Shown here piece after piece: positions 59,667-64,000 of a stretch of DNA of 64,000 bases. The DNA is from Serratia marcescens. Its GTDB lineage: Bacteria > Pseudomonadota > Gammaproteobacteria > Enterobacterales > Enterobacteriaceae. The stretch covers positions 1-64,000 of the forward strand of contig NZ_MJAO01000001.1 of the NCBI RefSeq assembly GCF_001902635.1, given 5' to 3'. A program made the translations under genes and the position numbers. The notes beneath the pieces were generated by a model. That model ran no database searches, was not told where the DNA came from, and saw nothing but the letters and a program-made list of their open reading frames with translations. Every line of letters starts with the position of its first letter. The stretch's first letter is position 1.

Positions 59667-61388
59667 TTGGATGCCAGCACCATTAACAGTTTGTTCGTCA
59701 TCGGTGCCGTGCTGGTGGGGGCAAGCATTCTGCTCAGCTCATTTTCTTCCCGTCTCGGCATTCCGATCCTGGTGATCTTCCTGGCGATCGGCATGTTGGC
59801 CGGCGTCGACGGCCCCGGCGGCATCGTCTTCAGCAATTACCCGGTCGCTTACCTGGTCAGCAACCTGGCGTTGGCGGTGATCCTGCTCGACGGTGGCATG
59901 CGCACCCGGGTCAGTTCTTTCCGCGTCGCCCTGTGGCCGGCGCTGTCCCTCGCCACCATCGGCGTGGTGATCACCGCCGGCCTGACCGGCATGGCAGCCG
60001 CCTGGCTGTTCAATCTCGATTTGCTGCAGGGGTTGCTGATCGGTGCCATCATCGGTTCTACCGACGCCGCCGCGGTCTTCTCGCTGTTGGGCGGCAAAGG
60101 CTTGAACGAGCGCGTCAGCGCCACGCTGGAGATCGAATCCGGCAGCAACGATCCGATGGCAGTGTTTCTCACCATCACGCTAATTGCGATGATCGCCGCC
60201 GGTGAAACTGCACTGAGCTGGACCTTCCCGCTGCATCTGATGCAGCAGTTCGGCATGGGCATCGTCTTCGGTCTCGGCGGCGGCTGGTTGCTGCTGACGC
60301 TGATCAACCACATCAAACTGGCGGACGGCCTCTACCCGCTGCTGGCGGTGAGCGGCGGCATTCTCATTTTCGCACTGACCACCGCACTGGACGGCAGCGG
60401 CATTCTGGCGGTGTATCTGTGCGGTCTGCTGCTGGGCAATCGGCCGATCCGCAACCGGCACGGCATCGTGCAAACCTTCGACGGCCTGGCCTGGCTCAGC
60501 CAAATCGGCATGTTCCTGGTGCTCGGCCTGCTGCTCAACCCGCACGAGCTGCTGCCAATCGCCATCCCTGCCCTGCTGCTGTCGCTGTGGATGATCCTGT
60601 TCGCCCGCCCGCTGTCAGTGTTTATCGGCCTGCTGCCATTCCGCAGCTTCACGCTGCGCGAACGCGGCTTTATCTCCTGGGTCGGTCTGCGCGGCGCAGT
60701 GCCGGTGATCCTGGCGGTGTTCCCGATGATGGCCGGTTTGCCCAACGCTCAGCTGTTCTTTAACGTGGCGTTCTTCGTCGTGCTGGTCTCCCTGCTGCTG
60801 CAAGGTACGACGCTGTCCTTCGCCGCCAAGAAGGCCAAGGTGATCGTGCCACCGGCGCTGACGCCGATCTCCCGCGTCGGGTTGGACGTACACCCGGAAA
60901 ATCAGTGGGAACAGTTCGTGTATCAACTTTCGGCGGAAAACTGGTGCGTCGGCGCGGCGTTGCGCGAACTGAAAATGCCACCCAATACCCGCATCGCCGC
61001 CCTGTTCCGCGGCAAAGAACTGCTGCACCCGAGCGGCAGCACCCGACTGCGGGAAAACGACATTCTGTGCGTCATCGGCCATGAGCACGACCTGCCGATC
61101 CTCGGCAAACTGTTCAGCCAGGCGCCGGCCGTCACGCTCGACGAGCGCTTCTTCGGCGACTTTATCCTGCAATCCGACGCCTGTTTGAGCGACATCTCGC
61201 AGGTTTATGGCCTCAATCTGCAGGACGATGTGGACGAGCAGCAAACGCTCGGCCAATTTGTCATTCAGCTGATCGGCGGTGAGCCGGTGGTCGGCGACCA
61301 GGTGGAATGGGATGGCCTGACCTGGACCATCGCCGAAATGGAAGGCAATCAAGTCAGCAAGATAGGCGTCAGGATCGTGGCCGACTAG
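59667..61388 (+). CDS. cvrA: K+/H+ antiporter CvrA (NhaP2-type)
   Basis: This 573-residue CPA1 antiporter has twelve or thirteen helices ([20 protein letters not shown], the ion-site segment [16 protein letters not shown]). A cytoplasmic TrkA-C type domain ([31 protein letters not shown]) is followed by a CorC/HlyC-like tail. The start is TTG 59667: AGGAG lies nine bases upstream and the next residues DASTINSLF match E. coli DATTI. The GTG at 59631 has no ribosome site. Confidence 0.93.
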
Positions 61389-61543
61389 CGGCTAAGGCCG
61401 GCGGTCAGCGTTATCACGCGAGGGAACTTATGGCCTTAAGAACGTTCTTAATCACTGTCATACTTTATGACGTGCGGCGCGGCTGATTTATATCCGTTTG
61501 ATATATAAATAATTTTGCAGCGGCACCAACAGGGATTAGGGAT

Positions 61544-61651
61544 GTGAACGGCAAGACTCGATTTCTTTCGGTGATGGTGATCATGGCGCTGGGCGTAGCG
61601 GCGCTCGATCTCAGCATCGCCGGTTTGGTCCATAGACTTTTAATTGGATAA
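61544..61651 (+). CDS. Candidate 35-residue membrane peptide
   Basis: This ORF starts at GTG 61544 (VNGKTRFLSVMVIMALGVAA) and has a single hydrophobic helix. TAGGG lies just upstream. It is the first of two tandem tiny ORFs after cvrA. No family is recognised. Confidence 0.45.
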   Translation: MNGKTRFLSVMVIMALGVAALDLSIAGLVHRLLIG

Positions 61652-61658
61652 TTTCAAC

Positions 61659-61775
61659 GTGACGCAGCAGCGGGAACAAGAAAAAGACATTCTGGGGAAA
61701 ATACTGGTGACGGTGTCCGCACTTTGCCTGGTTCTGGTGGCGGCGTTCCTGATATGGGGATTCGTGCTGGACTGA
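61659..61775 (+). CDS. Candidate 38-residue single-helix membrane protein
   Basis: This GTG-started ORF encodes VTQQREQEKDILGKILVTVS followed by a hydrophobic helix ending LIWGFVLD, a charged-then-membrane layout typical of real small membrane proteins. It starts seven bases after the previous ORF and a terminator follows 20 bases later. Confidence 0.55.
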   Translation: MTQQREQEKDILGKILVTVSALCLVLVAAFLIWGFVLD

Positions 61776-61795
61776 ACCACACGACGCCCAGAGAT

Positions 61796-61822
61796 AAAAA
61801 AAACCGCCGCGGCGGTTTTTTT
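61796..61822. terminator. Bidirectional terminator at 61.8 kb
   Basis: AAACCGCC/GGCGGTTT with flanking A and T runs separates the rightward tiny ORFs from the leftward gene at 61836. Confidence 0.9.
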
Positions 61823-61835
61823 ATGGGTCCGGCGA

Positions 61836-61967
61836 TCAGATTTTGCAGCCTTCGCAGTCCGCTTCGTCTTCGAGGAACTCCGGCACCTCTTTTACCTTCT
61901 GCGCCGCTTTCTCTTCGGCTTTCGCCAGTTCGGCATCGATATCAAAATCGAAAATATCATCACTCAT
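61836..61967 (-). CDS. Small acidic protein with C-terminal CxxxC
   Basis: This 43-residue protein begins MSDDIFDFDIDAELAKAEEK and ends DCEGCKI, giving a CEGC motif one residue from an acidic stretch. TGAGGA lies seven bases before the ATG and a terminator follows the stop, so it is probably expressed. No family is recognised; a metal- or partner-binding role is possible. Confidence 0.68.
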   Translation of the reverse strand: MSDDIFDFDIDAELAKAEEKAAQKVKEVPEFLEDEADCEGCKI

Positions 61968-62036
61968 CGCTTGGTCCTCAGTCTGCTTCACGTTCAAACG
62001 CTGAGTATAATCGACAAGCCGCCGGCCGGAAACCTT

Positions 62037-62540
62037 TCAGTTAGCCGCCGCCAGCTGCGGCTGCTCATCCTGCGGCTTTTTTCCGTAGGCCATGTCGTAC
62101 ACGTCGTAGAAGTCGATTTCGCCTTTGTTGCCGATGATCACCCGCATCTTCTGCTTGAGCGCGGCACCGATGGACGGTTCATCCAGCAGTTGTTGCACCG
62201 CGTAAGGCGACAGCGCACGGGTGAAATACCATTCGCCGTTGTAGCAAACCCGCAGATCCAGCACGCCGATGTCCTCGAAACGGTACACCGGCCGGATTTC
62301 GATCAGCAGCATGGCGAACATGAACAGGACGAAGGCGGTGAAGCCCAGGAAGGCATAAATCCCCATGTACGGCACTTGATACATCACGGCGATCACCGCG
62401 AAGTAACCGGCGAACATGGCAAGGCACAGATAGCGGTGAGTGCGGGCGAATTCGCCGTTGAAGCGCGGCTTGCCGTCACGCCCTTCGCGCCGGTTGATCT
62501 GTTCAATCTCTTTAACCAAGATGCTTTTAATCGCGTCCAT
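62037..62540 (-). CDS. ylaC: YlaC family inner-membrane protein
   Basis: This 167-residue protein has two central membrane helices and the YlaC signature VYRFEDIGVLDLRVCYNGEW. The C-terminal cytoplasmic part ends KGEIDFYDVYDMA. It resembles E. coli YlaC, a conserved membrane protein of unknown function. It is expressed in the same direction as the acidic gene 69 bases downstream. Confidence 0.88.
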   Translation of the reverse strand: MDAIKSILVKEIEQINRREGRDGKPRFNGEFARTHRYLCLAMFAGYFAVIAVMYQVPYMGIYAFLGFTAFVLFMFAMLLIEIRPVYRFEDIGVLDLRVCYNGEWYFTRALSPYAVQQLLDEPSIGAALKQKMRVIIGNKGEIDFYDVYDMAYGKKPQDEQPQLAAAN

Positions 62541-62663
62541 CGTTACAACCTTATGCTGGAAACAGCATTGCCATCAAATCTCACCGCTAAAACTAACACA
62601 AGTACAGTTTCGCCGGGTAGATCAGTTCGCCAACTTAATGGTGGCAACTGTTATAGTTATGGT

Positions 62664-62963
62664 TCATCGCGGCTGAGCGGCCTTGCCTTGCGCAAACATA
62701 AACATGCGCTGGGCGACGTCGTCGGCCTGTTTGATTTTCTGCTTTTGTGGCTCGTTACCGCGTTGAATGGCGCGGGCGTAGGCAATTTCATGCGCCTGGT
62801 CGATCATGGCGATGACTCGCTCACGTTCTGCCTTTTCCATATTGCCCAACATGGTGGTGATAATCGCCTGATACGCGTTGGACGCTGCGGTCAGCGCTTT
62901 CTCGCGCGCCTCGAGAGCGGCGACGCGTTGCAAGAGTTCTTGCAGTTGATCGGAGTGGGACAT
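62664..62963 (-). CDS. IraP-like small coiled-coil protein
   Basis: The 99-residue helical protein has a heptad-rich start (QLQELLQRVAALEAREKALT) and the segment IITTMLGNMEKAERERVIAM. This aligns by eye with the MLRNM region of E. coli IraP, the RssB anti-adapter that stabilises RpoS under phosphate starvation. Length and charge pattern fit moderately. AGGAGG lies before the ATG. Confidence 0.6.
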   Translation of the reverse strand: MSHSDQLQELLQRVAALEAREKALTAASNAYQAIITTMLGNMEKAERERVIAMIDQAHEIAYARAIQRGNEPQKQKIKQADDVAQRMFMFAQGKAAQPR

Positions 62964-63143
62964 ATCGACCTCCTGTTGCCGGGCAGCAAGCCTGCCTGAT
63001 CACAGTTTAGCAAAGGATCGAGGAAGAAAGGGGAAGGAAAGCCAGCAGTTACGGTAAAGCACACCCGAAAATCCCAACGAGGAGCCGATAGTGCAAATCA
63101 ACCCGGGTGCGCTTTACGGTAACCGCAAAGAAGTGAAGAAAGT
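62964..63143. other. Intergenic region between the IraP-like gene and the tRNA-like locus
   Basis: This stretch contains the promoter side of the IraP-like gene and a long inverted repeat (listed separately). I see no ORF. Confidence 0.5.
63048..63123. repeat. 20-bp inverted repeat with 36-base spacer
   Basis: GTTACGGTAAAGCACACCCG (63048-63067) and CGGGTGCGCTTTACGGTAAC (63104-63123) are complementary except for two positions, one of which can wobble-pair. The spacer contains no ORF. It lies 20 bases past the 3' end of the tRNA-like gene. Confidence 0.65.
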
Positions 63144-63240
63144 TGGCGCGCTATGCAGGACTCGAACCCGCGTCTATCAATTTTCAAGCCAAAACAAGCC
63201 ATTATAAAACCAATCACTCTGCCAACTGAGTTAATAGCGC
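63144..63240 (-). tRNA. tRNA-like gene with abnormal anticodon arm
   Basis: Read leftward, the locus has a perfect 7-bp acceptor stem (GCGCTAT/ATAGCGC), a D arm ACTC-AGTTGGCA-GAGT, a T arm GCGGG-TTCGAGT-CCTGC, a discriminator G and an encoded CCA. The segment between D and T arms is 44 bases instead of about 23. If 22 bases are treated as inserted, the remainder gives a loop TTGAAAA with anticodon GAA (Phe). Left whole, ATTGGTTTT can pair with AAAATTGAT as a 9-bp stem. The anticodon is therefore undetermined; it may be a pseudo-tRNA. Confidence 0.55.
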
Positions 63241-63556
63241 GTTCCTTCGCTTCGGGACGCCATTATCCATATCAACATTAAGGGTTCAAGTTTTTTAGCA
63301 TAATTCGCTGAATTTACGGATAAGTCTTAGGTTATCGATAGCATTATGACGTTACGGCAGCTCAATAATTCGATAATCGCCGACCATAAAACAGATACCT
63401 GCCCGGCGGATAATAACTCACCGTGATCTTTAGCGGGAAAGCCTTTACCATCCCTTCTCCAGCGGGAAAGCGCCTCACGTTTAGCGCCAGTTCAAGCTGG
63501 TGCTGCCATGATGGCAGACTGGAACCGCCGCTTTTATCGTTATGGAAAACCTGGGC
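63241..63556. other. Region upstream of the macA-type gene
   Basis: This 316-base gap between the leftward tRNA-like locus and the rightward adaptor gene contains AGCGGGAAAGC twice (63432-63442 and 63461-63471). A palindrome CTGCCAT-G-ATGGCAG lies near 63505. It presumably carries both promoters. No ORF is called. Confidence 0.5.
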
Positions 63557-64000
63557 ATGCCATCACTGAAACTCACACCCCGCCGTTTGGCGCCGATCGC
63601 CGTCATCATTTTCATCGCTATCGCTCTTGCGCTGGCGATCTATGAGCAACGCCCGCCGCAGCAAGATTATGTCACCGCGCCGGCGCGACTGGGCGATATC
63701 GAAAACGCCGTGCTGGCCACCGGTCGGCTGGATGCCGTCGAACGCGTCAACGTCGGCGCACGAGTCTCAGGTGAAGTGAAATCGCTGAAGGTCAAACTGG
63801 GCGACCGCGTCACCAAAGGGCAACCGATCGCCGACATCGACGATCTGCAGCAACGTAACGACCTGCTCAACGCCGAGGCGGCGCTGAACGTCGTCAAAGC
63901 TGATTTGCAGGCCAAACAGGCACAGCTGAAACAGGCTGAATCGCGTTTCAAACGCCAGCGCCGCATGCTGAACGACGAGGCCAGCTCGCGCGAAGACTTC
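63557..64000 (+). CDS. macA: MacA-type periplasmic adaptor of an ABC exporter (partial)
   Basis: The first 148 residues of an adaptor protein continue beyond the window. One N-terminal membrane helix (RLAPIAVIIFIAIALALAIY) is followed by the MacA-like DIENAVLATGRLDAVERVNV and GARVSGEVKSLKVKLGDRVT, then a coiled-coil (AALNVVKADLQAKQAQLKQA). MacA joins the MacB ABC exporter to TolC. ATG 63557 has GGAAAAC upstream; an in-frame ATG at 63542 is possible. The macB partner, expected downstream, is not visible. Confidence 0.85.
   Translation, partial: MPSLKLTPRRLAPIAVIIFIAIALALAIYEQRPPQQDYVTAPARLGDIENAVLATGRLDAVERVNVGARVSGEVKSLKVKLGDRVTKGQPIADIDDLQQRNDLLNAEAALNVVKADLQAKQAQLKQAESRFKRQRRMLNDEASSREDF

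What the first reader, a model, noticed from the sequence alone, without database searches (positions are those of the whole stretch)
63144..63240. tRNA-like locus with a 44-base segment in place of the anticodon arm
Acceptor, D and T arms, discriminator and CCA are all intact, yet the part between D and T arms is about 21 bases too long. It contains a direct repeat GGCTTG-TTTT-GGCTTG. Two foldings compete: a Phe (GAA) anticodon arm carrying a 22-base insertion in its 5' side, or an extended 9-bp anticodon stem with a 21-base loop. Intact outer arms with perfect complementarity argue against random decay. It could be a decoy, a regulatory tRNA-like RNA, or a tRNA with a non-standard arm.
Basis: partly seen in the sequence, partly recalled or inferred. 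Interest (0 to 1): 0.72.

Follow-up and report, generated by a model that had tools for sequence, protein, structure and literature searches.

The report
Conserved tRNA-like RNA that cannot decode
Serratia bacteria keep a tRNA-shaped gene whose anticodon arm is a long capped hairpin, so it very probably cannot read codons, yet its tRNA body hardly changes between species, which points to a tRNA-like RNA with a job outside protein synthesis.

Summary
At 63240-63144 (minus strand) lies a 97-nt tRNA-like sequence (TL): acceptor, D and T arms, discriminator and CCA intact, 39 nt in place of the anticodon arm. It is not a decayed copy. It is in 26 of 30 genomes of the genus (the 4 without it are 1.5-3.6 Mb) and in two sister genera. 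Its outer arms are 99.6% identical among 8 representatives; third codon positions of the next gene 55%. A promoter pattern stands at a nearly fixed distance in 29 of 29 loci. Candidate anticodons differ between species; Phe(GAA) exists in 12 of 29 loci. The favoured fold is a 9-bp arm with a 19-21-nt cap (369 of 369 pair cells kept, but no compensatory changes). About 20 nt downstream lies a second conserved RNA structure (HP), in the same 9 of 392 family genomes. In one genome a prophage-like island is integrated in the TL 3' end. Most likely: a non-decoding tRNA-like RNA whose body, not its variable cap, engages a tRNA-binding protein. Partner unknown; expression untested.

The parts
63262..63289 (-). 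Promoter-like site TTGAAC-16-GATAAT (within TATGGATAAT), followed by a GC-rich stretch
   Evidence: Scan: 1 found, 0.5 expected. TTG-N19-GATAAT in 29 of 29 loci, 21 nt (20 in L027) before the first base of TL. That a GC-rich stretch there suits stable-RNA promoters is recalled.
63241..63261 (-). Leader, mostly GAAGCGAAGGAA(C/U); can pair with the trailer, evidence inconclusive
63144..63240 (-). tRNA-like part (TL), 97 nt including CCA
63176..63214 (-). 39-nt arm in place of the anticodon arm: 9-bp stem AUUGGUUUU/AAAAUUGAU (three wobble pairs), internal loop, tentative 3-4-bp inner helix, 5-6-nt cap
   Evidence: MFE fold; pair counts; variable columns 8 of 13 unpaired against 3 of 26 paired, p = 0.002
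63148..63171 (-). T arm and 3' strand of the acceptor stem
   Evidence: Invariant in the 18 aligned sequences
63144..63160 (-). 17-nt stretch TCCTGCATAGCGCGCCA, found at both ends of the prophage-like island integrated here in genome G006
   Evidence: integrase
63047..63124 (-). Conserved downstream RNA structure (HP): 20-bp stem, three-way junction, arm GUUGAU-UUGCACU-AUCGGC and arm CCU/GGG
   Evidence: Fold z -4.8; 95.6% of 609 cells paired, covariation score 0.117 vs 0.081 shuffled, 0 of 500; same 9 of 392 genomes as TL
63004..63012 (-). -10-like motif TGCTAAACT upstream of the iraP-like gene; a similar motif is seen by eye in 5 of 11 inspected iraP-like loci without TL
   Evidence: Sequence; promoter function is inference
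62664..62963 (-). iraP-like anti-adaptor gene (99 aa), neighbour; probably not functionally tied to TL
   Evidence: PF10796, 28 bits, cut-off 23.2; NCBIfam IraP 26.6 bits, under its cut-off of 78

Best explanation
A conserved stable-RNA gene of the Serratia lineage makes a non-decoding tRNA-like RNA. Its own promoter starts a short precursor. The tRNA body lets tRNA-processing enzymes make a CCA-ended RNA (inferred). The anticodon arm is a 9-bp capped hairpin that should not read a codon (inferred from geometry). The invariant part is the tRNA body and the variable part is the cap, so the body is probably the working surface: it likely acts as a competitor or docking RNA for a protein that reads the tRNA elbow and acceptor (processing or modification enzyme, synthetase, or uncharged-tRNA sensor), and not as an antisense RNA acting through its loop. 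HP is probably the 3' part of the same transcript. Shown: conservation, promoter sequence, varying candidate anticodons, a structure kept in all aligned sequences, HP co-occurrence, use as an integration site. Inferred: transcription, processing, lack of decoding, partner.
For: Present in 26 of 30 genus genomes and 3 of 3 genomes tested of two sister genera. Eight representatives: outer arms 99.6% mean identity, 9-bp stem 96%, cap 81%; third codon positions of the next gene 55%. Promoter pattern in 29 of 29 loci. 369 of 369 pair cells kept in 13 distinct sequences. Triplet at columns 36-38 has 7 forms in 18 sequences; ARAGORN over 20 loci calls Tyr 5, Pyl 1, Stop 2, Lys 5, unknown 5, none 2. 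The own genome has ordinary Phe and Tyr tRNAs among 69 other tRNA matches. HP and TL in the same 9 of 392 genomes. Island with a tyrosine integrase in the TL 3' end.
Against: No expression data. No compensatory change in TL (0 of 29 pairs); the fold energy of TL is not unusual (z -0.55; 56 of 200 shuffles fold as well). One reading, UUA right after the first five arm bases plus two, is fairly constant (15 of 18). No partner found. The discriminator is A in place of G in one lineage (L027), which speaks against a fixed charging identity. HP could belong to the iraP-like gene. Missing from the four small genomes of the genus.
Confidence: 0.5

Rival explanations
1. A tRNA-bodied carrier for a hairpin: the tRNA fold stabilises the RNA and the capped arm is the working part, pairing with a target RNA or binding a protein, like an engineered tRNA scaffold.
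For: Same anatomy as engineered tRNA scaffolds, where the anticodon arm becomes an insertion region (PMC3753655, passages). The arm keeps AUG, CUU and UUGGCU in 18 of 18 aligned sequences.
Against: The cap is the least conserved part of TL (81%) and varies in length (19-21 nt), while the supposed carrier is 99.6% identical.
Confidence: 0.2
2. TL and HP form a leader that controls the iraP-like gene downstream.
For: Same strand; the iraP-like gene follows HP in 12 of 12 loci (spacer 78-93 nt).
Against: Of 17 genomes with an iraP-like match and no TL, 11 loci were inspected (about 1.5 kb each side) and none has TL or HP. In G006 an island separates TL from HP and the gene.
Confidence: 0.13
3. 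A working tRNA with an insert that is removed or tolerated (Phe, Tyr or other).
For: All tRNA body features are present; the Rfam tRNA score is over its gathering score.
Against: Candidate anticodons differ between species; the genome has ordinary Phe and Tyr tRNAs; 22 nt is too short for a known self-splicing intron (recalled).
Confidence: 0.07
4. A decayed tRNA (pseudogene) left by island integration.
For: Non-standard arm; an island is integrated at the site in one genome.
Against: Outer arms 99.6% identical where third codon positions next door are 55% identical; promoter pattern in 29 of 29 loci; changes respect the fold.
Confidence: 0.04
5. The locus is conserved only as an attachment site for phages or islands.
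For: Island in the TL 3' end with a 17-nt shared core.
Against: Seen in 1 of 26 genus genomes; would not explain conservation of the 5' half and the promoter.
Confidence: 0.04

Closest known systems
tRNA-Other of Bacillus cereus (pseudo-tRNA; PMC3399842, abstract and passages seen)
   Different: It has a Trp anticodon and is poorly charged with lysine in vitro; the Serratia one has a long capped arm and no constant anticodon. Sequences not compared.
Engineered tRNA scaffold for recombinant RNA (PMC3753655, passages)
   Same: tRNA acceptor stem, T and D arms with the anticodon stem-loop turned into a hairpin insertion region
   Different: Artificial; here natural, and the body, not the insert, is the most conserved part
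tmRNA
   Same: tRNA-like end joined to another RNA part (recalled)
   Different: TL has a D stem and a closed cloverleaf; ARAGORN and Rfam report a tRNA only
Active tRNAs with unusual structures (review PMC7609411, passages)
   Same: Anticodon stems other than 5 bp exist (6 bp in tRNA-Pyl and in a mitochondrial tRNA-Ser)
   Different: The passages shown hold nothing near 9 bp with a 19-21-nt cap; the word Serratia does not occur in the text

Membership tests
Decoding tRNA | Acceptor, D and T arms with CCA | tested here: met
Decoding tRNA | 5-bp anticodon stem with 7-nt loop | tested here: not met
   39 to 37 nt in place of 17 in 29 of 29 loci (TL length 95-97); predicted 9-bp stem and 19-21-nt cap in the 12 loci measured
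Decoding tRNA | Constant anticodon across close relatives | tested here: not met
   nearest to constant is UUA in 15 of 18
Decoding tRNA | Charging with an amino acid and use on the ribosome | not testable with these tools
   Needs acid gel, charging assay, polysome profile
tRNA pseudogene | Relaxed selection | tested here: not met
   Outer arms 99.6% against 55% at third codon positions
Non-decoding tRNA-like RNA (as B. cereus tRNA-Other) | tRNA-like fold under selection | tested here: met
Non-decoding tRNA-like RNA (as B. cereus tRNA-Other) | Part of a larger transcript | tested here: inconclusive
   HP co-occurs and looks like RNA, but no transcript data
Non-decoding tRNA-like RNA (as B. 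cereus tRNA-Other) | Absent from polysomes; deletion phenotype | not testable with these tools
   Wet-lab only
tmRNA | Reported by a tmRNA finder or the Rfam tmRNA models | tested here: not met
   ARAGORN and Rfam report a tRNA only

The most novel reading that the evidence does not exclude
A natural tRNA decoy: a lineage-wide RNA that has given up its anticodon for a capped rod and uses an almost frozen tRNA body to titrate or regulate a tRNA-binding protein, made as one transcript with a second, three-way-junction RNA.
Probability: 0.35. Interest if true: 0.8.

Novelty: new variant of a known kind. Interest (0 to 1): 0.6.

Why it matters
Gene finders file such loci as odd tRNAs or pseudogenes. 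Here the comparison shows a probably non-decoding tRNA-like gene kept with almost no change across a genus, which makes the question of what tRNA-shaped RNAs do outside translation testable by one small deletion. It also shows that a tool's anticodon label can be meaningless at a conserved locus.

Tried and rejected
Parent tRNA: comparison with 31 distinct tRNA sequences found by ARAGORN in the loci of 30 of the 70 tRNA matches of the own genome gave no close parent (best arms: Val, Lys, Gly). Leader-trailer pairing: cognate mean -9.6, cross-group -9.0, shuffled trailer -6.9 kcal/mol over 22 of 29 loci (L019 dropped because its trailer is island DNA; L004, L006, L011, L012, L017, L021 not used): inconclusive. 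ARAGORN's type-II folding: 98.0% of cells paired against 100% for the 9-bp arm, its variable helix 88.5%: less good, not excluded. Strand: MFE is lower on the TL strand in 18 of 19 HP and 13 of 13 TL sequences, but shuffle-corrected z-scores hardly differ (HP -4.63 against -3.91, TL -0.70 against -0.82), and the strand counts use a fold derived from that strand, so strand evidence is weak. Elsewhere: phages, 4 records matching the last 36 bases only, annotated tRNA-Arg; plasmids, 2 records matching the same part; E. coli, no match; viral contigs, none for a 20-base pattern; order 2 of 394 and class 2 of 369 genomes at E <= 1e-13, being the window's genus except one ordinary tRNA-Gly. L041 is a chance match without TL. 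Family draw: 8 of 119 genomes matched, of which 4 are short partial matches and not TL. Papers: seven searches; none of the titles and abstract starts listed describes this locus; most subscription papers are not held.

Rows left out of counts: alignment A1 used 18 of 29 loci (the window stands for 12 identical sequences). A2 and A3 used 21 of 29 (not L004, L006, L007, L008, L011, L012, L019, L021). The identity means rest on 8 loci. The upstream stretch there (40%) may hold non-homologous sequence, since the upstream gene differs between species.

Full report
What is there. On the minus strand at 63240-63144 a 97-nt sequence has a 7-bp acceptor stem, a 4-bp D stem, a 5-bp T stem, discriminator G and CCA. 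ARAGORN reports it as tRNA-Tyr (AUA); the Rfam tRNA model scores it 44.6 bits with 26 bases of the anticodon region set aside. It is the lowest of 70 tRNA matches in the own genome, which also holds ordinary Phe and Tyr tRNAs.

Where it is found. A BLAST search finds it once in each of 26 of 30 genomes of the genus; the four without it have 1.5-3.6 Mb. In a draw of 119 family genomes it is full length in four: two of the genus and one each of two further genera; 3 of 3 genomes tested of those two genera have it. Named records put the group in Serratia: 14 of 15 matches to a 20-base pattern are Serratia, among them S. marcescens, S. plymuthica, S. proteamaculans and S. rubidaea; the fifteenth is a chance match. 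Draws from the order (394) and class (369) at a strict threshold gave only the window's genus and one ordinary tRNA-Gly. These searches of more than 40 genomes used filters that can lose weak matches.

It is kept by selection. Among eight representatives the mean pairwise identity is 99.6% for the 58 outer bases, 96% for the 9-bp stem, 81% for the cap and 87% for HP; for comparison 55% at third codon positions and 78% over all positions of the next gene, 67% for the promoter stretch, 70% for the leader, 44% for the trailer, 68% for the spacer before the next gene, and 40% further upstream. The promoter stretch as a whole is thus no better kept than the spacer; what is constant is the pattern TTG-N19-GATAAT, 20-21 nt before the first base in 29 of 29 loci. 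The conservation of the outer arms speaks strongly against a decaying pseudogene.

It does not look like an ordinary tRNA. Over 20 loci ARAGORN names it Tyr (5), Pyl (1), Stop (2), Lys (5), unknown (5) or nothing (2). The triplet at columns 36-38 has seven forms in 18 sequences; the one at columns 34-36 is UUA in 15, UUU in 2 and UUC in 1. The Phe(GAA) reading exists in 12 of 29 loci, those with the window's own TL sequence. I infer, without a test, that a 9-bp arm with a 19-21-nt cap does not decode.

The arm. The minimum-energy fold is a cloverleaf whose third arm has 9 bp, an internal loop, a GGCU/GGCU helix and a 6-nt cap. In 13 distinct sequences 369 of 369 pair cells are kept. Eight of 13 unpaired arm columns vary against 3 of 26 paired ones (Fisher p = 0.002). 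Against this: no pair changes on both sides, the fold energy is not unusual (z -0.55), the full-length folds of some loci with flanks differ in the arm (for example L015-L018, L022, L027), and ARAGORN's rival folding keeps 98.0% of its cells. The outer stem is probable, the inner helix tentative.

A second RNA structure. About 20 nt downstream (63124-63047) lies HP, a 20-bp stem closing two small arms. Its energy is far below shuffles (z -4.8). Of 609 pair cells in 21 sequences 95.6% are paired; 4 pairs change on both sides (22 of 500 shuffles reach this); the covariation score is 0.117 against 0.081 (0 of 500). Related sequences can exceed such shuffles without structure, so this is support, not proof. 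No Rfam family but tRNA matched 60000-64000 at E <= 1. HP and TL occur in the same nine of 392 family genomes; HP follows TL in 28 of 29 aligned loci and lies beyond the island in the other. No classical terminator was found. HP may be the 3' part of the TL transcript or belong to the next gene.

Surroundings. The next gene on the same strand is iraP-like (PF10796, 28 bits) and then ylaC; the iraP-like gene follows HP in 12 of 12 loci measured. Seventeen of 119 family genomes have an iraP-like match and no TL; in the 11 of these that I inspected neither TL nor HP was found. TL and HP thus look like an addition in the Serratia lineage, not a general iraP leader. In genome G006 a tyrosine-integrase gene follows TL and an island of roughly 38.6 kb separates TL from HP; both island ends carry TCCTGCATAGCGCGCCA. 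I judge it a prophage by eye from its reading frames; only the integrase was searched. The site is used as tRNA genes often are (recalled), and TL stays intact.

Mechanism. Because the body is frozen and the cap drifts in sequence and length, I favour a body-reading partner: a competitor or docking RNA for a tRNA-binding protein (0.5 for the whole statement). A carrier for a working hairpin is the main rival (0.2). One lineage has discriminator A (L027), which speaks against a fixed charging identity. No transcript, processing or partner was tested.

Known relatives. The nearest published kind that I saw is the B. [quoted passage not shown] The anatomy equals that of the engineered tRNA scaffold (PMC3753655, passages). 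A review of unusual tRNAs and a 2026 survey of 4-bp anticodon stems do not hold the word Serratia (PMC7609411, PMC13092985, passages and term counts); the latter left out tRNAs labelled pseudogene or undetermined. Seven library searches listed no paper that, by title and abstract start, describes this locus.

Noticed in passing
63047-63124: Conserved three-way-junction RNA structure (HP) without an Rfam match at E <= 1; its arm loop UUGCACU inside GUUGAU/AUCGGC resembles an anticodon arm, perhaps by coincidence.
   Followed up: partly
L106 from 1600 on, to L108 (genome G006): Island of roughly 38.6 kb with a tyrosine integrase, phage-like by eye, integrated at the 3' end of TL.
   Followed up: partly
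62664-62963: iraP-like gene far from the NCBIfam IraP model (26.6 bits, cut-off 78); a match in 21 of 119 family genomes at E <= 0.001.
   Followed up: partly
63241-63261 and 63125-63143: Purine-rich leader and pyrimidine-rich trailer can pair; evidence inconclusive.
   Followed up: yes
L013, L015, L027, L050 upstream of TL: The gene upstream of TL differs between species: macA-like in the window, and in these loci a gene that by eye starts like a UvrC/GIY-YIG-type nuclease (not searched).
   Followed up: no
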